Assembly: GCA_013407085.1 (NCBI GenBank)
Contig: JACCGJ010020530.1
Span: forward strand, 1 to 64,000
DNA length: 64,000 nt
Source: Atriophallophorus winterbourni
Lineage: Eukaryota > Platyhelminthes > Trematoda > Plagiorchiida > Microphallidae
Reading direction: 5' to 3'
Below the pieces are notes generated by a model that was not told the origin of the DNA, did no database searches, and worked only from the letters and a program-made list of their open reading frames with translations. Each line of letters opens with the position of its first letter. Positions within the stretch are counted from its first letter, which is position 1. This document shows positions 10,973 to 63,459 of the stretch, one piece after another. The position numbers and the translations under genes are program-made.

Positions 10973-11425
10973 AACACATAAACTTTCAATAAACTAGCCA
11001 CATTTTCTACGTTTACAGAATTGGCCAATAATCAAACGGGATCGTTCGGCTGAATAAATCCACCTTTCTTCCTTACGAAATCTGGAAGAATAATAATTTT
11101 TTGGTTCAATATATCATTTAAGTTCTAAAATTTCGTTCCAAATGGAAGTGTTTTGATTTCGTTCCGGTTCTGAGTGCATAAACTTTCCTGAATTTTCTGT
11201 ATATTTTTATTGTTTGCCTACTAAAATGATTTGTAAGTAGCATAACAACAAATAACAGATGAGTTCACAAGGTATTTGAAAATATTCGAAATCCATCTGG
11301 AGTCCATAATCATGAAAATGAAGTTTCAATGATTCGGTTATAGCAAGTCTTGACCTCGCCTGTCTTTCTTAACGAACTCAGGATTGGTCAAGAAAATGCC
11401 ATTTAAACCTGAACACAGTTCGTAC
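10973..11425. other. No feature seen
   Basis: AT-rich spacer with no recognised gene or repeat. Confidence 0.4.
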
Positions 11426-11429
11426 CAAC

Positions 11430-11480
11430 ACCCTTGGTCTGACGAAGCTCCTGTGTTCAGAAGCGAAACGTTCCCAAAAA
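11430..11480 (+). ncRNA. Hammerhead-like motif
   Basis: CTGACGA at 11,439-11,445 is followed by a 19-nt segment that can fold on itself (AGCTCCTG..CAGAAGC), then GAAACGTT. Core order and spacing fit CUGANGA, helix II, GAAA. One extra A lies between core and helix II and a helix II base has decayed. TTGG upstream can pair with CCAA downstream as helix I. A close relative lies at 39,876-39,921 on the other strand. Activity is doubtful; kinship to the hammerhead repeats is likely. Confidence 0.45.
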
Positions 11481-11796: not shown

Positions 11797-11935
11797 GCAC
11801 CGGACTCGAGTTTCGCTCTTACTTAAGAATAAAAATCAAGAATCAAGATTTTATGGTGATAAAAAGCTAATGCTTTACACGTACCATTGGATGACAACTA
11901 TTGCAAAGAGCTCATCAGCAGTGCATATCCTCCTC
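11797..11935 (-). ncRNA. Hammerhead ribozyme split by an 83-nt insertion
   Basis: On the minus strand the 5' half (GCACTG, CTGATGA at 11,918-11,912, GCTC) and the 3' half (GAGC, GAAA at 11,814-11,811, ACTCGAGT, CGGTGC) match the intact copy on the other arm. The helix II loop, 6 nt in the intact copy, spans 89 nt here. The core is unmutated and ACTCGAGT is perfectly self-complementary. Confidence 0.65.
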
Positions 11936-11946
11936 CCACCCGAAGC

Positions 11947-12004
11947 GGAGGATATGCACTGCTGATGAGCTCAAATAAGAGCGAAACTCTAGTCCAGTGC
12001 TTCC
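11947..12004 (+). ncRNA. Hammerhead ribozyme, intact core (type I, minimal helix III)
   Basis: Elements in order: helix I 5' strand GCACTG (11,956-11,961); CTGATGA (11,962-11,968); helix II GCTC-AAATAA-GAGC (11,969-11,982); GAAA (11,983-11,986); short helix III within ACTCTAGT; cleavage after C11,994; helix I 3' strand CAGTGC (11,995-12,000). All invariant core positions of the hammerhead fold are present. A helix III of about 3 bp with a 2-nt loop matches the small type I hammerheads known from Penelope-like elements and retrozymes, which can work as dimers. Confidence 0.8.
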
Positions 12005-14995: not shown

Positions 14996-15689
14996 GCATG
15001 AATTGATTTACGTGATTGATCAGTGGACTGAGTTCAATCATCCGAATCGTTCTGCTGTGAATATGTGTAATGAAAGAATCGAGCAGTACGAATAGATGAA
15101 TCTCAACGCTTTAATCGTAACTGTTTTCCGTTATAGTTACTGTAACAGCTATTTTATAGAAAGCAGCAAGAATTTAGACGCAATTATTCCGCTTATCAAG
15201 GCTGTTACTAACGATTGGACTCAAGTGACGGATAAAGGGAAGGTATTTCGTACCTGCTACTGTAATAGCTTTTAAGCATTGATCATGTTAACCACAGCAT
15301 GCTATTACAGATTATAGAAATAAAAGGTATCGTTGAAAAGAAAAGATATCGCGGGAAATTTTGAATTGGTTAATTGAATACAGAAAAAGCCACATTACCC
15401 ACATACGTGTTGATGGTGTATTATCAAAAACAAGTGCAGCAACTCGCGGAGATCCTTAAGGTTGAGTCCTTGGTCCCATAGTCTTTCTGGTATAGGTCAA
15501 TGTGATATTAGCATTATTCGCTGTAATATATGGTTATTCGCGGACGAGATGAATGTGTGGAGTTTCATTCGTAGCCCATAAGACACCTTGGCATTATAGA
15601 ATGGTGTTGGTGTGCTTCGCATTTGGTCGTTAAAGAGCAAAATGCTTCTGAGCTTCAACAATTGCAAGCTCATCGATCTCAGTAACCCT

Positions 15690-15935
15690 GTTTACCATTT
15701 ATCTACTGTTCCAAGGCTCACTAAACCTAATCTTACTGTATCCACCCGATGACGGCAAACAGTCAGAAACCGGTAGTGGAGTGTCATTTCGGGGATGTGA
15801 GCAACACATCACTTTGGTCATCCATAAGCGCCTTGAGTACTTGGCCACGAATCACTATGTGATTCTGTGTTTGAACATCGTGGTTCGTTGTACGAACCCT
15901 ATGCAACAGTGGCATTCAAGTATAACCTCGAATAA
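15690..15935 (+). repeat. Single hammerhead repeat unit
   Basis: The unit aligns end to end with the tandem units at 24,239-24,640: actgttccaaggctcacta, the hammerhead block, gtgagcaacacatcactttg, catccataagcgccttgagt, gaacatcgtggttcgttgta. This is a single copy; the following sequence diverges. Confidence 0.8.
15741..15779 (+). ncRNA. Hammerhead motif with one core mutation
   Basis: TCCAC (helix I), CCGATGA where CTGATGA is expected, helix II GGC/GTC region, GAAA, CCGG, TA, GTGG (helix I). The T-to-C change at an invariant core position probably kills activity. Confidence 0.6.
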
Positions 15936-15939
15936 TATG

Positions 15940-16880
15940 GATTATTTACATATACATGTGCGCAATCAATTGAACAGGTTTGTCGTATTGAACTTATCGT
16001 ACAATAGATTCAAAGTTCAGAACTTGATGCTCGTTTCTCCATTGTTTTAAGTCCCGTGATTAATTTAACAGCACGAAACCGACCGCGGGGTGTGCAATAT
16101 GGAAATTCCCGCATTTTTTCATCATCATGGGTTAAAACTCCTTATACATGTCTTTCAACACATGTGACTGAACAAGTGAGTCATCACAACATTATCCAAC
16201 AGTGGAATAAAAGCCAAAATCGTGTTTACCTTTCATGCACTGTTTCAAGCTTATGCTTATCGCTAACCGTACTGTCCCGAACCGCTTAGTGTGAACAGCG
16301 CAAAATTGGGTTCTGACACAGAAGCATGTGAAAATGAATATTTTTTGCAAATCGAGTCCGTTTAAAGATTCTGTAAGCTAAGCATGCAAATAGTTTTATT
16401 TAATTGAAACCAGGCACATTTCTACCCACGAGGGCTTATCGTGTGAATATGTGTTAAAAAAGATTACGCTGCTCAATTTTATCTGACAATCCATGAACTT
16501 TTCAAGGTTCATTTTTTGGATTTTGTAATGACCATTTCATATGTGCAACTTCAAGATTAGGGATTTACGATGAAAAAAGCAAATAGCTGTACAATACCAT
16601 AGGATATATGTATGCAAGTTTAACAAATCGTTACTTTAATACTTCCGTCTAAGCACTTCAAAGGAGGAGCAAAAGTAATTCCAATTGTGACATGGATGGA
16701 AGAAATTTCAACCGGAAACGTGGGAAAATGTCATACATTTTTAGATAACAAAAGTGAACACAAAGGAATTTATTGTCATAAAACTTCATTTACTTTAGAA
16801 TTTCATTCATTATCTCATATTTAACAAACATAAGGGCGAATTGATAAGTAACTCAGCTGCCAAACATATCGATGTTTATC
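15940..16880. other. 3' flank of the ANKRD13-like gene; weak repeat echo
   Basis: At 16,070-16,210 the words acgaaaccgaccgcggggtg and ttcaacacatgtgactgaac loosely echo 30,850-31,050. The rest is AT-rich. It may hold the 3' UTR of the minus-strand gene; no clear AATAAA could be tied to it. Confidence 0.3.
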
Positions 16881-20100: not shown

Positions 20101-23100
20101 AGTATAGCATATACACCACATAATGCATCTTGCTTGCGAATCGCTACGAGCCAAAACGACCTCAAAAGTACTAAACGCTGAAACACTGCCAACCGAATTC
20201 AATGCAGTTTTAATAAATTATTGAACATGTTTGGGCTGTTAAGTGTTTCCTATCTACCCTTGCTGAGGTACTATGTCATTCCGGGATGGAAGCCCGAGCA
20301 TAAGCAAAGTGTTTAAATATCCCAACGTTCTAAACTTACCAATCGCCAATGGGAATCCAGGTGGAAGAATGCTTTCAGCCATCTCCCGTAAAGTTCCCAA
20401 TTTCGACAAAGGGGTTAAAACACAAAGGATGTCGAACAAGCTGCAACAAAATTGAAGCAATCACGATTGTGTGCAAATTTATTAATGTGAAAAGATTGGA
20501 GATGAACGCACATGGATGCTTTCAGCGGAAGCTCTTCTGTCTGGAAACGAAATTTGATAACAAATTTGAAACGGGTCTACAATAACTCAACTTACAACCA
20601 ATCAGTAAATACCATTAGTTTTCACGAAATCGTTAAACAGCATTACCATTTGGACAACTGTAGGGTAAATCAAGTCCACACGTACAAACCAAAGTCGACC
20701 TCCGTGTCCTTACGAGAAAGTTTTCGTCTATTACGCCAAAGTAGCCCAACTTATTTACGGCTTTTGACCGTTTAATTTCACTAATATGTTACTAATGAGT
20801 AGTAGCAAACACAAAATATTGTGCTAATTTGCCGTGGAAGTCGTAATCTATGAATGAATAGCATATGAAAAACAAGTTGAGCTTGCTCGTTTGGTTTGTG
20901 AAACGGAAGTGCACCCAGATCAGGATTTTTTTTCAGGACCATGGATTTAAAACCGATCTACTTGACAGGATTTATCGTCGTGCGACAAAGTTGAACTCTC
21001 GATACAGAAATTTGCCTTTCAAAGAGCGAATGTTAAAACTAAATCTACACGATTTTAACCAACGATGGATATGGAGTAACCTCTGGTTGGCATTCGAAAT
21101 CTTGCATACAGAAAAGCTTCCCCTTAAACACTAGCTGAAGCCTTACTTGAACATGAAAACATTCAAATGCTTCAAGCATTCCACATTCTTGATTGGATAT
21201 TCGTCATAACTTTTGCTCCAAAAACCTATCCATATCAAGACTCACTGAATAAAAACGTACTAGCTTACACCAATGACAGCAAATAGCATGGAACCCGTTG
21301 TAGCTTGTAAGCCTCAGTGAACCTAATCTGTCTCAACCTAATGATGACAAACAACGAAAAAAGGCTATAGTTGTTCTCCGAGCTGGGGTGGTTAATTGCG
21401 GACGTTTCGTCATCAAACTAGATGACATCATCAGCGAAACACCTTTCGAAGCAACTGGGTGATGGGTATCATTCGAAATTATCTGCTGCGTTGCGAACTC
21501 ATCTACTGTGATTGGCTAGAATCCTTGTATGTCCCCGTTGTGGACGTGTTCTCATTGGTTCGTATACCCCATCAAATTGAATGTGCTCATTGATTGGGGT
21601 CTGCAGACTAATGAGAACACGCCAACATCGAGGGCATGTAAGGTTTCTAGCCAATCACCGAGTTAGCAGCGCAGCAGATACATTCAAATGATGCCCATCG
21701 CCCCGTTGCTTCGAAATAAATTTCACCGATGATGTCATTTAGTCTGATGATGAGAGGTCCGCAGTCAACTATCCTAGCTCGGAGAACAATTATGACCTAC
21801 TATCCCGTACCTGAGCTAAAGTTTTCAAAACTGGCAAACAAAGGATCATTGTAGAGCGTAAGTGCGGCGGAGTTGAGTACCACAATATATTAGTATATCT
21901 ATCAAGTTTCACCACATTACTAGGGTATCGAATCTCGGTATATGCTGTACTGTATATAAAATTTCAAGATGTTTATTTCAAGTGCTTACCATATCAACAG
22001 TAACCTTGAATTTCTTCTCACTTCTACTGATATCAGGTTCACGGCCGAGGTACGTATCGGGGCCCTCCAAATCTCCGTTCTTGTATTCTTCCCAAGATAC
22101 TGGGCCGCAGTTAAATTCACCCGGCAGCAGTGACGATTTGTGTCCCGGAGGTGGACTCAAAGACGCTGAACGCGGAATTACCACTTTCTAAAATGGTAGA
22201 ATAAGCGTTAATTACTATTCTGTCAAAATATGGAGTTAAACCAATTCACTGTGTCAGGGTAACATTTCCGTCTAATTATATACTCACAGCTATCAAGGTG
22301 GAGGTTGTTGTAGCTGTTATGAGGCATTGTTCACTAAGCAATAAAACAGCCCGAATCGCTGATTGGCTGGAACTTAGACACTACTCTTAACCAATGAAAA
22401 CATTCCGACTCGCCACTTGGTTTTGACTTTGAACAATGTTTACGATCATTATTGACAGAATATACAAAAAATATCGATTGTTTTCTAAAAGCACTGCTCA
22501 CTCGGGTGTAATTGATCTCTGCATTTCAGGTATACACAATGATTTGGCTTTTAGCCTTTTCTACGTTGGTGGAAAGTGATTTGTTGGATCGACTTCTATC
22601 AGAATCTTTTCTAAAGAAACCGCAAACACGACACTAGTCCCACTGACACTCGGAACTCATATGAGACTTTCAAGTTGCTGTTTGTGATCATGACTTTGTC
22701 GACGAAGTTGAACTGGTTTTTTATCAGCATGCGGAGACATAAAACACTGTAGACAGAATGAAGGGAGTGCTCACTTCTTGAAAACAGATGCGAGAGATTA
22801 AAATCGCCCATGATCAACAACTAAGTAGTCTGGCAGCTTGTGATGTATTGCAAGGATTCGATAGGTTTATCATTAAATGAACTTTTGGATGATGGCGAGC
22901 GGTAATGATGCCTATCGTACACACATCTCCATTGACTAAGTTTACTGAACACCACATCGTATCAGGTCAGGATGATCGATTACGTTAAACTGCGCTAAAC
23001 GTTCATGAAAGTAGACAGCAAATCTACTGCCGGAACTTAGGCGATCGCGACGGAGTAGTGACATTGTGGGAATCGAGAGCTCAGCATCAGTCATGTAGGG

Positions 23101-26100
23101 ATGGGATCAAGTCTCTGTAACTGCAACCAACTCTGGTGAAAGTCTGTCGAAAAGTTCAGCTAATTTGTTAGTTAAACATGTCTGGTGGAAGTTTTGCGTG
23201 GTACGATTTCCAGTTGGATTTGATAGCGATACCCACGTCGTTCTTGGAAAATTCCAACATTGTGTTCTGAACAATTTCCATATTCGCTACGAAAAAACGA
23301 CCTTCAAACTGATCAACCACGTTTGTTCCGCGCAAATGTGTTGCATTCTAAAACGCTGGATGCGAAAATCGATAATGATCCAAATTGTTAATGAATTCTT
23401 TGAACAGAGTCATGGACATCTTTGTGCCCAAAGCGAAATGATGGTTTTGGTTGTTCGCCGATGGATGTGGATTTGACGTCGTGTTAAATCTGTTGACGGT
23501 GATGGTGTCGATGATATTGTTGATTCTAACACCAACATTTGGTGTCCTAGAAGAAGACATTTAAAAATTCAATGACCTCATTGATGGTGATCGAGAAAGT
23601 GAGGAAGACAATTTTAAATACATTATGACTTCCGCTGATGTTGATGAAGTCTAGCAGACATTATTTGATGACAGTTTTGCTGATGCTAATGTTGCTTTGG
23701 TTGGTGTCTGTCCGGATGAGGATATGCAACTTGATCTCCGCGTTAATTTACAAAAAATACCGTTTTCTATGACCACATTCTGTGTTTCAATGTGTGTATT
23801 CCAGCGTTCACCAGTCACCGATCGACCGAATGCTGTCTATCTCTGTGGGAGAGATTGTTCCTCCCAAATCAGACTGTTTAGCCAGTCAAAACTCTATGAA
23901 GCATGAAACTATCATACGCTTGGGATGCACGTCCATGGCCGACATCGACCGACGGAAACCATCGTTGTGGTTAGAATTTACTACCCAATCGAAAACGGAT
24001 TCGGCAAGATTCACGTTATCGATACAGTTAATCGCTTTTATCGATGTATTTCAGAGTTAAAACTTTTCGCCTGGATTACTGATCACAATCACTCACGTGA
24101 ATCCGCTTGAAGCTCCGTGCAACCCTTTTCCGACTAGCGTTCAAGTGTTCCATTCTGAAATGAAAACCATATCGTTTAAGTTGATTTTAAAAACGTTAAA
24201 TATTCTAAACAAGGTTATACTTGTAGGCCAACTGTTATATAACAGTTGGCATACAAGTATAACCTTGTTTACCTTTAATCCACTGTTTCAAGGCTCACTG
24301 AACCTGATCTTACTGTCTCCACCTGACGATGGCAAACAGCCTGAAACCGGTAGTGGTGTGTAAGGGATGGGGATGTGAGCAACACATTACTTTGGTCATC
24401 CATAAGCGCCTTGAGTGCTTTGACCAAGAATCACTTTGTGATTCTGTGTCTGAACATCGTGGTTCGTTGTACGAACCCTATATAACAGTTGGCATACAAG
24501 TATAACCTTGTTTACCTTTAATCCACTGTTTCAAGGCTCACTGAACCTGATCTTACTGTCTCCACAGGACGACGGCAAACAGCCAGAAACCGGTAGTGGT
24601 GTGTAAGGGATGGGGATGTGAGCAACACATTACTTTGGTTAAATATTCTGTTCCAATTCCACGAAAACAGGCCTTGGTGGCTCATATGATCGAAATTATA
24701 AATCAGGTTTCCGTGATTTGATTTTGTTATATGCGATATCTACAGAATGGAAATCCATCTAGTAATAAGCAAGATGATCCCTCTGATATCGGAAACGGGA
24801 CTTTCGTAATATTCGTGACAGCTGTTTTGATGTTGCTGTATCAAATTTCAGCTAAATTGACTTTTTTCACAGATCTTACTTCAATGACTGATGCAAAGTA
24901 ATTGGAGATGATCATATCTGACAAACCCGTTGCTGAGTAGAATACAATCTTTAATACGCATGCATAACTTCTATAGAAGAAGAAGAAGAAGAGAATGACT
25001 TTATTCGTGTACACGAATTTTCAGCCTTTCGTTTCCTTCATATTACGTTAGACATAGATCGATTTGTTGGGTCATATTTCCCCAATCTCGTTCCGAAATT
25101 TTAAAAACAACAATGTGTGAAGGTGCGAAGTGTGTTGACGATGAGTGCTAATCACGAGCTCTCGAATGGTATGCAGAACTCGGCTCTCTCCGACACAACA
25201 CAAGAGCAAGAAGCGCCGAGAAGTTTGACGACGACAAACTCGCAAACTCGTAATAATAATTCGGGTTTCGGAAAGATTAAATTAGAACGGTTCAAGCGAC
25301 ATCTTCGGACAACGTCAGCCGCAATCAAACGATATGCAATTCGTCAATGTCGGTCAGACGAGCTCTGTGTGGCGAGGACTTGAAGTGTTCCGGTGGTTAG
25401 AAATCGACTGACAAATCAGATCAAAGTGACAACAGGGATAGACAGGCTGAAGATCACCGTCGTGATTGTTTGTTTGCCTATATAATATAAGCGTGTGTGT
25501 TTCGTTATTTGTCTTCTGCGTAATAAGCGCCTTTGACCAATCGGCTTCTCTTGTGTTGTGTGGATTCGTGGATAACCGCGATTAGCGTTGGACGGGATGA
25601 TCTCCGCGATGAATCGCGGCACAATCGATGTGGGTGTGTGCAACGTGTGGGGATACGTGGCTATCGTTGGACCGAAATGCAACAGTTGGTCAGATATACG
25701 CCAGCGGCGACTTGTTGACCGAAAATGACCTGACGCATGATTCCGGGCCTGTCTCTCTACCCCTAATTGCTACAATCAGACGCTCGATCAAAGTCTTTTT
25801 ACTCGCAATTCGTGAAACAATTTTTACATTTGTAGTCGCATCGCGGAGACGTGAAGCGCGCTCGTTAATCAAAGAGCTCTCGAATGACATGCAAAATACC
25901 ATCCTTCGTAAGAGCAGAAGGCGATGAAGAGATGGACGACGATCATCGTCAAAGCACTGAAATTTGGATTGCGGAAGATTTGCGTGAAAACAGTTCTGAC
26001 AGCACCAAATTGAAAACATCGCCAGCTATGGAATAATATGCGATTTATCAAGGTCGGTAAAAAGTGCTTAACCTAGTGAGAGCTCGAATAAACACAATCG

Positions 26101-36875: not shown

Positions 36876-37216
36876 GTTCTGTATACAAGTGCCACGCTAA
36901 AAAGAACCTGTGAAATACATTGGGTGACATCACTTAACATCATGCGTTTGACTTTCAATATTGTCTTCAAAGTTACTTCTCACCAATTGCAAAACCATGT
37001 CCACAAACATGAAGTCGCTTAAAAGATTCACAGAACGTGTTTTTTTACATTTTTTATTCAAAATATCTTTGTCAAACGAAACTTCTGATAGAATTTACTG
37101 TGTCACATTGCAATTCATATTGCTAATACGCTATGCCTGTTTTCCGAGAATATTTTTATATGTGAAAATTGCGAAGATGTTGCGTTTGTTTGGTGCTTAC
37201 ATCCCTATCCCTTACA

Positions 37217-37259
37217 CAACACTACTAGTTTCTGTCTGTTTGTCGTCATCATGTGGAGA
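37217..37259 (-). ncRNA. Hammerhead motif with CTAG helix III
   Basis: Minus strand: TCTCCAC, ATGATGA (first core base changed), ACAAACA-type loop region, GAAA, CTAG, TA, GTG. Helix III changed from CCGG to CTAG yet is still self-complementary. That is a double change preserving pairing. Confidence 0.6.
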
Positions 37260-37438
37260 TAATAAGATCAGGTTCAGTGAACATTGAAACAGTGGTAAAC
37301 AAAGTATGCCACTGTTAAACAGGGTACCGGCAAAGAACGTTGTTCAAATACAGAATTACAAATTGATTATTGGTCAAGCAATCAAGGTGCTTATAAAGCA
37401 CTAATGTATTGTGGTGCTCACATCACCATCCCTTACAC

Positions 37439-37480
37439 ACCACTACCGGTTTCTGGCTGTTTGCCGTCATCAGGTGGAGA
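37439..37480 (-). ncRNA. Hammerhead ribozyme, intact core
   Basis: Minus strand: TCTCCAC, CTGATGA (37,473-37,467), CGGC-AAACA-GCCA, GAAA (37,453-37,450), CCGG, TA, GTGGTG. Every invariant core base is present. Helix I is 4-5 bp, helix II 3 bp plus a C-A mismatch, and helix III a self-complementary tetranucleotide. This is the best-preserved unit-type hammerhead in the window. Confidence 0.75.
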
Positions 37481-37789
37481 CTGTAATTTCAGGTTCAATG
37501 AGCCTTGAAACAGTGGTAAAGTGGTAAAAAAGTTATTCTTGTATGCCACTGTTGCAAAGTGATTATTGGTCAAGGGCTTGGAAACAGTTTTAAGTTGTTT
37601 ACTGTTAACGAGTACAGATGTAAGTTCATGTTCAGTCAGCCTTGAAACAGTGGATAAGTGGTAAAGAAACTTATACTTGCGACAAAGTGTTACTCGAATT
37701 GGCACATCCGAACATTGGATGATCATTCTTCAAGCAGAGACAGTGAAATTAGGTAGATCTAAACGAAAACTACAATATCTTATCCAACT

Positions 37790-39838: not shown

Positions 39839-39966
39839 AGCAAAGAAATTTGAGTGCAATCGGTTAGAGTAGTTTTTGGGTAACGTTTCACTTCTGACAC
39901 AGAAGCTTCGTCAGACCAAGAGTGATAGTCAGGACAGGGAACATGATTGCACTCAAATTTCTTTGA
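39839..39966. repeat. Inverted repeat around a hammerhead-like motif
   Basis: caaagaaatttgagtgcaat c (39,839-39,859) is exactly complementary to g attgcactcaaatttctttg (39,945-39,965). The motif at 39,876-39,921 sits in the loop. Confidence 0.8.
39876..39921 (-). ncRNA. Hammerhead-like motif
   Basis: Minus strand: TTGGT, CTGACGA (39,914-39,908), an extra A, hairpin GCTTCTG-TGT-CAGAAG, TGAAACG, TTACCCAA. A cousin of 11,430-11,480. The extra base and a G-to-T change next to GAAA make activity doubtful. Confidence 0.5.
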
Positions 39967-43760: not shown

Positions 43761-44147
43761 TCACATGATTGGATGAGGTGGTTCCGTCCGTCCAGACGCA
43801 TCGTTCTTGGTCAACAGACCGCCGAAGGTGTGTTGTCCAACCCCATCAGCATCCATCGGTGAACCCCGGTTCAATCGCATGTGAGACGCGACCAAGTCGT
43901 CGGTGTCCAGTGCCGCCATCAGACTGAGTTCTCCGGCCAGTACAGCGCCGGCGATGAGACGAGCCAGATGCTCCGTCGGGCGATCCACGCACAAGTCCAA
44001 CAAGTCGAGACAAGCACGTTGCGCGGGCAGACGAGTCCCCCCTCCGATTGTGCCAACTTCCAAGCAAGGCATGGTGACACTCGCGATCAACGACTGGCAG
44101 TCGTCGGACACGGAGAACTGGGTCAGGCAGGCGGAAGAATCGACAAC
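43761..44147 (-). CDS. HMGR terminal exon (catalytic His, stop)
   Basis: It reads [59 protein letters not shown] and ends HPIM-TGA. The catalytic His is in ASHM. The usual NRSK context of the AMPK-type phosphoserine is NRGSP here, so the serine is shifted by one. The C-terminal tail is longer than in vertebrates. Confidence 0.97.
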   Translation of the reverse strand, partial: VVDSSACLTQFSVSDDCQSLIASVTMPCLEVGTIGGGTRLPAQRACLDLLDLCVDRPTEHLARLIAGAVLAGELSLMAALDTDDLVASHMRLNRGSPMDADGVGQHTFGGLLTKNDASGRTEPPHPIM

Positions 44148-47100
44148 CTGGAATGGCGCGAGGGTGTTTAGAGTCACAATTTTGAAAAGCAGCTAGGAAG
44201 CACGCGACCGGTTTCGTGGTTGCGTACTCGAATCCTATTCTAACTGGGTTAAACCTAAGTTTTTGCAGTAGTGGTGTTTAGTTGAATAAACGAAAGCTAC
44301 CGACCATCATCAACGCGCTCATGTCGCGTACAGTAGTTTTACCGGAACAAGAAGCAGAAAACATCAATGCATTAATACGGCAACAGGCACCAAATCGCCA
44401 ACATACAATATCCCAAATCAAGGAAACAGTGGAAGTTACCTAGTCGACAAAATAGCACGCACAGAATGATGTGCCTACACCTCGAATCAAACAAGTATTC
44501 ATCCAGTGATGCGTGACATCAGCACGACACCTTCCTTCGCCACTCCAATTGACTCAATTTCTTCAAATGGTAAACTGCTCATGCTCATGCGCCTGAAAAT
44601 ATAGTAGAAAACTGGGTCATTTCGGGTAACTCGATGGGCTAAGATCGGACGATTTTGTCCTGCTTAATTTACACCGGATGTGGTCGTTGCTTTCTACTCG
44701 CCTGCAAGGAAATGTTGTTGTAAAAATTCAAAAGCCTAGTATAAAATAAAAATCACATAGGCGTTGATGAGTAAATGTAATCTAACAAGGCACGACAATT
44801 GTTCAGGCTATAAGCTCAAGTATACTTGGGTTCTGAAATCATTGCCAGCATGTTTTGAGATTTTACGGTGACATTTTATCTCAGTGAAGAAGAACTTGCT
44901 CTTGATAAATCACTTTGGAGGCACTGTGTGGAAGGACATCATCAAGTTGGTTCCAAAGGTTGTCATAGCCGGGGTTGGCGGTGAGGATAAGCTCCTACTG
45001 TCTATAAAATGCTTCCATATGGCGCGCGTCTCAAATAGCCTCTGAAAAACCAAGTCCAGCTTCTGGCCTACACGAGTGGCTCCCCGAGCCCGGCGGAACC
45101 GCTTCTACTAACAAGAGAAGGGGCGAGTGCGAGTGACTGGCGCCTGAAAACTAGTTTGAGTCGGGCAGGTGGAGCTTGCTAGTCCGAGAGGGCAGTTCAT
45201 CTAGGGGAAGGAAAACCCGGATTTTAAACCTCCGCTGCCTTGCGGGATACCCGGTCGCAGGAAAGGCTCGGAGGAACAATCCAGAGCAGAGTCCCGTAAG
45301 CGGTTAGCTGGTTCACAGCACCTATTTCCAGCAACTCCATGCTACCCTGTAGGTCGTACTTGGTTGTGCAAATGCTAGAGAAGCTGACTCGAACAAACGC
45401 CGAGTGGTGCTGGGGACGCCAAGAACCTTCATTGAAGCCGACTCATCCTCCAGGAAAAGATAGTCGCACAAAAGTAAAAGTAAGTACATTTGAAAGCTAG
45501 GGACGAGCAGATAATTCTCTCGGTTGTTGAAATTAGATCACACATTCTGTGTGCCTTGGCTAAGAGACTGTCAGGTTGCCCAGGCCTAGAACCTCAACAA
45601 ATGACAACGAGACTCCAGTTTGTTTGCGCATAGAGCTCAGTACCTTTGGTAAATCGATTTAGCACGATCTTATCTAGGCAGTACTTCATTTATGCCCAAT
45701 TGCACATCCTCTCTCCCGTTGCTTCTCGTAAGCTTTTCTAGCAAATGCGGGGAAATATCTGAGCAAGAAACTAGGAACCTACCAAACCGATAACGGTCTA
45801 TGAACCGGGTATTTTCGCCAGGCTTTACTCCCAAAATTGTATAAAAGCACAAGCCTGATCCAGGGAAAGTGCCGCACAGTCAGAGACTGCACGTGGGCTA
45901 ATATACTGTCAGGTTGCCCAGGCCTAGACAGATATGAGGGAGGGAAATAGAAATAGTTCTCACGACAAAGTATTACTAAGAATAATTCAGGTAAGCAATA
46001 AAGCTTCAACTTTCTAGGGAGATTGATTTTCAAGGCGTCTTTCAACAATCCTCGCTCTTCCTTCTCCTTCTCTTAGTAAAATCAGTTCCACCATACTTCA
46101 GAAAGCTGTAAGATCGGGTCCGAAGTTGGTCTTGGTAGCTGGAGGCGATAGGAGACACGTGGAATCGTTTCTCCACTGTCAACCTATGAAATCCACGCGA
46201 TCTTAACAAACGCTGCATCAGCTATGAGTCCACAACCGCCCCAACTGTTGCAACATACCCTGCTGCTTACCTGAGCCAAATCCTGACCGGTCGCAGCGAA
46301 AATACCCGCGACCACATTGGCGGCATGCGCATTGGCGCCCATCATCCCGGGACAACCAGCCATGGCGGATCCTGTCCAATTCTTGGCAGAAGCCAGTCGA
46401 GTCAATCGAGCGGGAGTGGTGTGAAGCACTTGCGCGAGAATGGTGGCTGGCAAGCACGCCTCGGCGAGGACAGATTTGCCGCGGCCGAGGATAGTGTTGA
46501 TGGTGGCGGGCTTCTTGTCGGTGCACATGTTGCCACTGATGGAGATGACCTAGAACGGAGAAACAGACAGGGGAAGTCATGGTCACACGATCGTCATCAT
46601 CACAGACAGCATTACACCGGTGGCACGTACCGAATGCTTAACTGCCACACAACCACGAAAAATAAAATCCGAAAAGATGGGGAAGGGTGGGACTTAAATT
46701 GCTACGGATTCTATAGAAGAGTAAACACAAACAAACTGGGAAGAGGTGCCTACACCTCCAATGGAACATACGTTCAAACAAGTTTCGTGAACGAGTAGAG
46801 CGACATCAGCACGGCAGCTTCCTTGTGACTTTCACTGTCACGCATCATAACAAGCATTTCTCGTCACTCCGCTTGACAACATACAAGGTTAAGCAAACAC
46901 TCCAAGAAGATGCTAAGTGCAAGACCGCCATTGAACACGGTTTCGGGACATATCCTGAAGCGTAACTAGCCATTGCGATATATGATCGCGGGGACACCAG
47001 CCCGGTAGACGCGCTGCGCCAACTTTGGAAAGGTTACTAGTAAGGGTTTTTAACTGCCTATGCCATGTGACGGTTTGGCCACCCCGAGATTTACGCCAAT

Positions 47101-63400: not shown

Positions 63401-63407
63401 TGACCTT

Positions 63408-63459
63408 CAGTTCAGTTCAGTTCAGTTCAGTTCAGGTTCAGTTCAGTTCAGTTCAGTTT
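63408..63459. repeat. (TTCAG)n microsatellite
   Basis: About ten pentanucleotide units with one ggttcag slip in the middle. Confidence 0.95.

What the first reader, a model, noticed from the sequence alone, without database searches (positions are those of the whole stretch)
24239..24640. Tandem short units each with a hammerhead: candidate flatworm retrozyme or Penelope pseudo-LTR array
Seen: two head-to-tail units with predicted cleavage sites 243 nt apart; unit 1 has all invariant core positions (CTGACGA, GAAA, cleavage after TA). Known: animal retrozymes and Penelope-like elements carry small type I hammerheads in tandem units and can give circular RNAs. Inference: transcripts would self-cut into roughly 243-nt RNAs. 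Helix III is a self-complementary ACCGGT, so cutting probably needs dimers.
Basis: partly seen in the sequence, partly recalled or inferred. Interest (0 to 1): 0.87.

Follow-up and report, generated by a model that had tools for sequence, protein, structure and literature searches.

The report
Flatworm jumping element with self-cutting ribozymes
This looks like one copy of a very abundant short jumping element in a parasitic flatworm genome; it carries a tiny, probably self-cutting RNA motif and is built and inserted like a Penelope-type retroelement, which makes it a concrete case for testing how such ribozyme elements spread.

Summary
Confirmed and extended. Positions 24207-24637 are a 431-bp insertion flanked by a 12-bp target-site duplication: a head-to-head inverted piece of about 33 nt, one full 243-nt unit and a partial second unit. 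Unit 1 has a complete minimal type I hammerhead core with palindromic helix III (A-CCGG-U). Unit 2's core is broken, so release of a 243-nt RNA from this locus alone is unlikely. The assembly (537 Mb, parasitic flatworm) holds 4,521 exact matches to the core motif. Fetched copies include truncated monomers and arrays of about 4, 5 and at least 10.6 units. In 20 sampled loci, 15 have an outer end at unit phase 152-162, about 41 nt past the cut; 9 have duplications of 9-15 bp, 5 have pieces on both strands. Older homologous copies pass Rfam's type I hammerhead cut-off, and helix II covaries between subfamilies. The genome also has tandem Penelope-like elements (RT and GIY-YIG matches, both below Pfam cut-offs) with an unrelated palindromic minimal hammerhead. 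Best reading: a non-autonomous retrozyme-like element with a Penelope-type hammerhead, moved by Penelope-like machinery. Cutting and RNA circles were not tested; insertion 5' ends are not enriched at the cut.

The parts
24195..24206 (.). left copy of 12-bp target-site duplication GTTAAATATTCT
   Evidence: exact direct repeat; a match of 12 or more between random 25-nt stretches of the window occurred in 14 of 20,000 draws
24207..24238 (-). head-to-head inverted piece of the unit's first ~33 nt (32 of 33 identical; the match itself starts at 24206)
   Evidence: the repeat finder I4 and blastn
24239..24481 (+). unit 1, 243 nt, 44.4% GC
24319..24356 (+). minimal type I hammerhead of unit 1: helix I CCAC/GTGG, core CTGACGA, helix II GGC/GCC with U.U at its base, GAAA, palindromic ACCGGT, cut predicted after A24352
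   Evidence: descriptor scan, fold, genome-wide pattern
24482..24637 (+). partial unit 2 (phases 1-156; 97.5% identical to unit 1 over the 158 nt aligned)
   Evidence: blastn; right end set by the target-site duplication
24562..24599 (+). broken hammerhead of unit 2 (C3-U4 read A-G); its cut site TA|G after A24595 is intact
24638..24649 (.). right copy of the 12-bp target-site duplication
15683..15928 (+). another copy: circularly permuted monomer, phase 22 to 27, 1.02 units; U4 reads C
   Evidence: blastn
37185..37681 (-). another array on the minus strand: about three units, the 5' one with an internal deletion; the middle one has an intact core, the 3' one has C3 changed to A
   Evidence: nhmmer, descriptor

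Best explanation
A non-autonomous short retroelement. It is transcribed (inferred) into RNA that carries one or more 243-nt units, each with a minimal type I hammerhead. Helix III is only A-CCGG-U, so two hammerheads pair through their palindromes and cut one another (inferred from fold and published precedent). A Penelope-like reverse transcriptase-endonuclease made elsewhere in the genome (copies present) nicks target DNA and starts copying at a preferred internal place about 41 nt downstream of the cut site (clustered 3' ends shown; enzyme inferred). It copies through part of a unit, one unit or several, usually stops short (variable 5' ends shown), in some copies folds back to leave a head-to-head inverted piece (shown), and repair leaves a target duplication of about 9-15 bp (shown in part of the copies). 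Templates spanning intact cut sites must be uncut multimers or re-ligated circles; the data do not decide which.
For: Insert bounded by an exact 12-bp duplication with an inverted 5' piece. In 20 further loci, 15 have an outer end at phase 152-162, 9 have duplications of 9 bp or more (same search at random places of these loci: 7 of 1000), 5 carry pieces on both strands. Arrays of 5.05, 4.04 and at least 10.58 units, the last with an inverted piece of phase 23-157 head-to-head. 4,521 exact core motifs. Core better kept than the rest: 0.866 against 0.786 over 65 copies, 0.853 against 0.786 over the 59 not fetched through an Rfam hit. Helix II pair 10.2-11.2 is T-A in 32 and G-C in 16 of 64 copies (26 and 16 of 58 without the 6). 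In 5 loci all 8 hammerhead-clan matches at E up to 0.5 lie inside family-profile hits, and 4 of 8 reach the gathering score (37.2, 37.2, 35.9, 34.6 bits). The double-hammerhead fold is the predicted minimum for two bare cores. The genome has tandem elements with RVT_1 and GIY-YIG matches and frames to 878 aa, with a palindromic minimal hammerhead of their own.
Against: No RNA data. Insertion 5' ends are not enriched at the cut: 1 of 20 within 6 nt (p 0.67). With 6 flanking bases per side, the predicted minimum of one or two RNAs is not the hammerhead fold, and the same is true of the autonomous element's motif. The young subfamily has C.A or U.U at the base of helix II, which should weaken cutting. 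The units share no detectable sequence with the autonomous elements' 5' regions (nhmmer no hit at E 10), so the enzyme partner is inferred. Other ends exist: 5 of 20 loci have no outer end at phase 152-162 (126, 240, 32, 237, 34); 8 of 20 show no duplication of 7 bp or more. Many copies are decayed: 8 of 65 keep all 12 core positions.
Confidence: 0.75

Rival explanations
1. A retrozyme in the strict sense: the ribozyme cuts multimers to about 243-nt monomers, a tRNA ligase circularises them, and a LINE- or Penelope-type enzyme copies the circle several times, which makes the arrays. (This overlaps with the best explanation; it adds the circle.)
For: Unit size, noncoding look and arrays match published metazoan retrozymes (PMC7229834; arrays). 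Some copies are nearly whole numbers of units long: 1.02, 1.04, 4.04, 5.05.
Against: Published metazoan retrozymes are described with classical type I hammerheads; this one is of the minimal Penelope type. Many inserts are not whole-number (0.34 to 2.22 units). Arrays could also grow by unequal exchange. Circles not observed.
Confidence: 0.35
2. The units are an internally deleted Penelope-like element: two pseudo-LTRs whose coding region shrank to about 86 nt.
For: Layout inverted piece, pseudo-LTR, spacer, pseudo-LTR, duplication resembles bdelloid Penelope elements (PMC3846280). Unit 1 has an ATG overlapping the core with the cut 24 nt on, and the insert ends 22 codons after the matching place in unit 2 (where the ATG itself is lost); in Anolis the cut is 26 nt after the ATG, and one bdelloid pseudo-LTR plus tail reaches 22 codons.
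Against: The units match no autonomous element fetched. The frame after the ATG shows no coding signal in two pairwise comparisons, and a search with the open frame of copy 15652-16050 found nothing at E up to 1.
Confidence: 0.3
3. A plain satellite or SINE-like repeat in which the hammerhead look is accidental or long dead.
For: In the window alone the core is no better conserved than the rest; unit 2 is broken; Rfam misses unit 1; flanked cores are predicted to misfold.
Against: Core conservation in the larger set, helix II covariation, Rfam-level matches in homologous copies and 4,521 intact motifs.
Confidence: 0.07

Closest known systems
Metazoan non-LTR retrozymes (Cervera and de la Pena 2020, PMC7229834; parts 1-4 of 6 read)
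   Same: Short low-GC units of about 170-400 nt with a type I hammerhead, dimers to long arrays, no coding sequence found, target-site duplications longer than 4 bp; axolotl retrozymes also have a one-pair helix III with palindromic tetraloop, or a U.U at the base of helix II
   Different: Here the hammerhead is the minimal, Penelope-type form in an invertebrate; clustered internal 3' ends and head-to-head inverted pieces as in Penelope elements; circles not shown
Penelope-like elements with minimal hammerheads in pseudo-LTRs (PMC11167929 parts 1-2 of 4; PMC3846280 and PMC7761336 passages)
   Same: Minimal type I hammerhead, tandem pseudo-LTR layout, inverted 5' piece with palindrome at the junction, duplications (8-10 bp in the bdelloid examples), copying started inside the template beyond the cut
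   Different: No reverse transcriptase or endonuclease in the element; unit 243 nt; no sequence match to the autonomous elements fetched from the same genome
Schistosoma SM-alpha and the related W36.2 element (PMC8490949 and PMC6155905, passages only)
   Same: Flatworm repeats with type I hammerheads
   Different: W36.2 is 335 bp; no sequence comparison was made here. The genome's other hammerhead family (window 11956-12000) passes Rfam's cut-off and was not compared with SM-alpha either

Membership tests
Metazoan non-LTR retrozyme | Type I hammerhead in tandem units of about 150-450 bp | tested here: met
   243-nt units; arrays of 1.66, 4.04, 5.05 and at least 10.58 units
Metazoan non-LTR retrozyme | Non-coding, GC below 50% | tested here: met
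   GC 44.4%; no coding signal in two comparisons, no protein relative for the longest frame of a copy
Metazoan non-LTR retrozyme | Canonical hammerhead with loop-loop contacts | tested here: not met
   4-bp helix I, 3-bp helix II with mismatch, loopless helix III; no Rfam match at unit 1. Axolotl retrozymes depart in a similar way. Loop-loop contacts themselves were not modelled
Metazoan non-LTR retrozyme | Linear and circular monomer RNA | not testable with these tools
   no RNA data
Penelope-like element | Reverse transcriptase plus GIY-YIG endonuclease in the element | tested here: not met
   the insert is 431 bp; the RT and GIY-YIG frames lie elsewhere in the genome
Penelope-like element | Minimal type I hammerhead in tandem pseudo-LTRs | tested here: met
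   the genome's autonomous elements have one too, by eye in 3 of 3 fetched regions
Penelope-like element | Head-to-head inverted piece and target-site duplication | tested here: met
   window; pieces on both strands in 5 of 20 and duplications of 9 bp or more in 9 of 20 sampled loci
Penelope-like element | 3' ends at a preferred internal start of reverse transcription | tested here: met
   an outer end at phase 152-162 in 15 of 20 loci
Type I hammerhead ribozyme | Invariant core and three helices with cut after UH | tested here: met
   unit 1 and 4,521 genomic motifs; helix III forms only between two copies
Type I hammerhead ribozyme | Self-cleavage | not testable with these tools
   needs transcription in vitro

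The most novel reading that the evidence does not exclude
This is the link that has been proposed but not shown: a retrozyme moved by Penelope machinery. The Penelope-like enzyme starts at a preferred internal site about 41 nt past the ribozyme cut and runs one or more times round ribozyme-made circles, giving arrays of near-whole unit number with head-to-head fold-backs; autonomous and non-autonomous partners share only a palindromic double-hammerhead design, not sequence.
Probability: 0.3. Interest if true: 0.72.

Novelty: new variant of a known kind. Interest (0 to 1): 0.52.

Why it matters
It has been proposed, not shown, that Penelope-like elements move animal retrozymes (PMC7229834, PMC7761336). 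One genome here offers both candidate partners in large numbers, with readable insertion ends, target duplications and arrays. That makes three questions directly testable: whether circles or uncut multimers are the template, whether double hammerheads with palindromic helix III are the working form, and what in the RNA the Penelope enzyme recognises.

Tried and rejected
A chance hammerhead look-alike: disfavoured by the Markov control, the backward-pattern control, conservation and covariation and Rfam matches in homologous copies (those five loci had been fetched because of RF00163 hits, so the point is that the hits fall inside members of this family, not that hits exist).

5' ends made by ribozyme cutting: first copies suggested starts at phase 110-116 (L004 110, L018 112, L013 116); the 20 further loci did not bear it out (1 of 20 within 6 nt). 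Dropped.

Alternating intact and broken units as a design: suggested by the window and by spacings near 484 nt; reading the arrays showed scattered small insertions and deletions, perhaps assembly errors, and u2's A-G state is not among the 12 non-CT cases of the 100 places listed. All 4 unit 1/unit 2 differences fall in the hammerhead (chance about 0.003), but unit 1's U.U state is a recurrent subfamily state (14 of 100 places listed), so this is weak.

A coding role for the frame from the ATG in the core: no codon-position signal, no relative for the frame of copy 15652-16050. Open frame 53-478, which I read from memory as a Penelope endonuclease: no Pfam (above chance), NCBIfam, PDB or protein-database match; only a 29% match over 70 residues to the L012 element. 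It is not used as evidence.

Searches outside the genome: patterns not found in viral contigs or genome contigs, insert not found in plasmids. A DNA search with the whole unit gave 0 hits even to itself, as that tool skips very common words. A control pattern for mutation rate outside the core was asked seven times and never answered; stand in for it.

Full report
What was checked. The two units lie 243 nt apart and are 97.5% identical over 158 nt. Unit 1 has CTGACGA, a three-pair helix II with U.U at its base, GAAA, the palindrome ACCGGT and TA|GTGG; cuts are predicted after A24352 and A24595. Unit 2 reads AGGACGA and is broken. A descriptor scan found 3 sites in the window on both strands against 0.005 expected; its tolerance was chosen after seeing the sequence.

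The insertion. 24195-24206 and 24638-24649 are the same 12 bases, so the insert is 24207-24637. It begins with an inverted copy of the unit's first 33 nt, 32 of 33 identical, joined head-to-head at a TTATATAA palindrome. This is a retroelement-like insertion, not just a tandem duplication.

The host and the family. An HMG-CoA reductase exon at 43761-44192 (-) matches parasitic flatworms best among the named hits (Rodentolepis, Sparganum, Schistosoma, Protopolystoma, Hydatigera; 120 of 191 hits were listed). The assembly has 537,331,230 bases in 15,840 contigs. A profile of six window copies finds 19 stretches at E below 0.01 in the window, those six included, and 80 at E up to 0.001 in 273,140 bases of 26 sources (three short loci that overlap longer ones were dropped before the count). 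The 34-place core pattern occurs 2,332 + 2,189 times, its backward control 0; a 35-place pattern with C3 and U4 left free occurs 4,679 times, and 88 of the 100 places listed have CT.

Is the ribozyme under constraint. In the window the core is no better kept than the rest: 128 of 160 letters against 1,092 of 1,310. In the larger set, 65 of 80 copies cover at least 10 of 12 core columns: 668 of 771 core letters match the majority against 3,545 of 4,513 outside, and about 2% of random 12-column sets do as well. Six of the 65 had been fetched through an Rfam hit in their own hammerhead; without them it is 596 of 699 against 3,163 of 4,024, and 4.75% of random sets do as well. Helix II pair 10.2-11.2 is T-A in 32 and G-C in 16 of 64 copies; pair 10.1-11.1 is G-C in 28 and C.A in 18. 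This may be a single change between two subfamilies. The majority sequence of all copies is a minimal hammerhead with a four-pair helix II; the young subfamily, to which the window units belong, has lost the first pair. In 5 loci, all 8 hammerhead-clan matches at E up to 0.5 lie inside family-profile hits and 4 of 8 reach Hammerhead_1's gathering score.

How it would cut. Helix III has no room for a loop. For two bare 38-nt cores the best predicted structure is the double hammerhead (-21.7 kcal/mol; two single folds -11.4), but with 6 more bases on each side the predicted minimum pairs part of the core and is not a hammerhead, for one RNA and for two. Published precedents for dimeric cutting are newt, axolotl and Penelope motifs. 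In a double hammerhead each core cuts the other copy's site, so the window insert should be cut at 24595|24596 but hardly at 24352|24353 (inference).

How it inserts. Twenty stretches were fetched from the first 24 places's list (the three places on C2 were left for later as L051, and two on C10 fell in one stretch). An outer end at phase 152-162 is found in 15 of 20; in the five loci with pieces on both strands only one of the two outer ends is there, and I counted that one. The other five loci end at 126, 240, 32, 237 and 34. Under ends uniform over 243 phases p would be about 1e-16, but these copies were chosen for holding the core (phases 86-119), so the fair expectation is higher, about 2 of 20 by my reckoning. 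Nine of 20 have a duplication of at least 9 bp (random places 7 of 1000), three of 7 bp, eight none; two of the nine, L045 and L046, share the same duplication and similar flanks and may be copies of one another. 5' starts vary widely, with three at phase 57 (TCACT) and three at 146; 1 of 20 lies within 6 nt of the cut. Arrays of 5.05, 4.04 and at least 10.58 units were read, the last with an inverted head.

The likely enzyme. L012 holds frames with a reverse-transcriptase match (RVT_1, E 7.6e-6, 26.2 bits, below the cut-off 29.6). A relative, L054, has a GIY-YIG match (E 0.0027, 18.4 bits, below the cut-off 22.6). With the L012 endonuclease-side frame as query the genome gave 125 scored matches (12,533 candidates), several in tandem 2.72-2.76 kb apart, with open frames to 878 aa. 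The name Penelope-like rests on these matches, the tandem layout and motifs recognised from memory. All three regions fetched (L054-L056) carry CTGACGA, one extra A, a GCTTCTG/CAGAAGC helix II, GAAA, palindromic ACGT and a 5-pair helix I, read by eye; Rfam does not list a hammerhead there at E up to 5, and the predicted minimum of one or two such RNAs is not the hammerhead fold. The window has pieces of this region at 11348-11480 (+), 11268-11351 (-) and 39858-39937 (-). In Anolis the Penelope enzyme starts copying inside the template, beyond the cut, prefers AT-rich DNA, and does not need ribozyme cutting in vitro; bdelloid copies show inverted pseudo-LTRs and 8-10 bp duplications. The window element shows similar anatomy, but its units share no detectable sequence with these regions.

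Judgement. In design it is of the retrozyme kind, with a Penelope-type ribozyme and insertion; it is not a Penelope-like element itself, as it has no enzyme. Shown: anatomy, copy number, modest constraint, clustered 3' ends. Inferred: transcription, cutting, the enzyme, the template form. Literature seen: PMC7229834 parts 1-4 of 6; PMC11167929 parts 1-2 of 4; passages of PMC7761336, PMC3846280, PMC8490949 and PMC6155905; Cervera 2014 and Lunse 2017 are not held and known only through those papers. Searches for a report of such an element in flatworms listed none that I recognised as this one (15 of 2,492 papers listed, 15 of 6,002, 12 of 12), in an open-licence library only; PMC7229834 does mention retrozyme-like repeats in platyhelminths in general.

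Noticed in passing
window 11956-12000 (+): A separate type I hammerhead over Rfam's cut-off (34.3 bits), with an inverted copy of its 5' part at 11908-11933; relatives, most with helix III ACTCGAGT, occur in fetched loci, in some on both strands.
   Followed up: partly
window 11268-11480 and 39858-39937 (-): Pieces of the autonomous Penelope-like 5' region with its own minimal hammerhead (CTGACGAAGCT...CAGAAGCGAAACGTT at 11.43 kb); at 11.3 kb two pieces lie in opposite orientation.
   Followed up: partly
L049:138-2836: At least 10.58 tandem units with an inverted head, running to the contig end; many small insertions and deletions, maybe assembly errors.
   Followed up: partly
L054 to L056 and contigs C7100, C3157, C7794, C2094: Autonomous Penelope-like elements in tandem about 2.72-2.76 kb apart with frames to 878 aa.
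   Followed up: partly
L029-L048: Three of 20 copies start at the same place, phase 57 (TCACT), as if at a transcription start; three start at phase 146.
   Followed up: no
window 43761-46549 (-): Exons of an HMG-CoA reductase gene: 43761-44192 by search; the piece near 46184-46549 by eye only.
   Followed up: partly
window 21362-21798: Large imperfect palindrome (139-nt arms, 81% complementary, with an inner 64-nt pair); it draws sub-threshold microRNA matches.
   Followed up: no
window 63406-63458: TTCAG pentamer tandem repeat.
   Followed up: no
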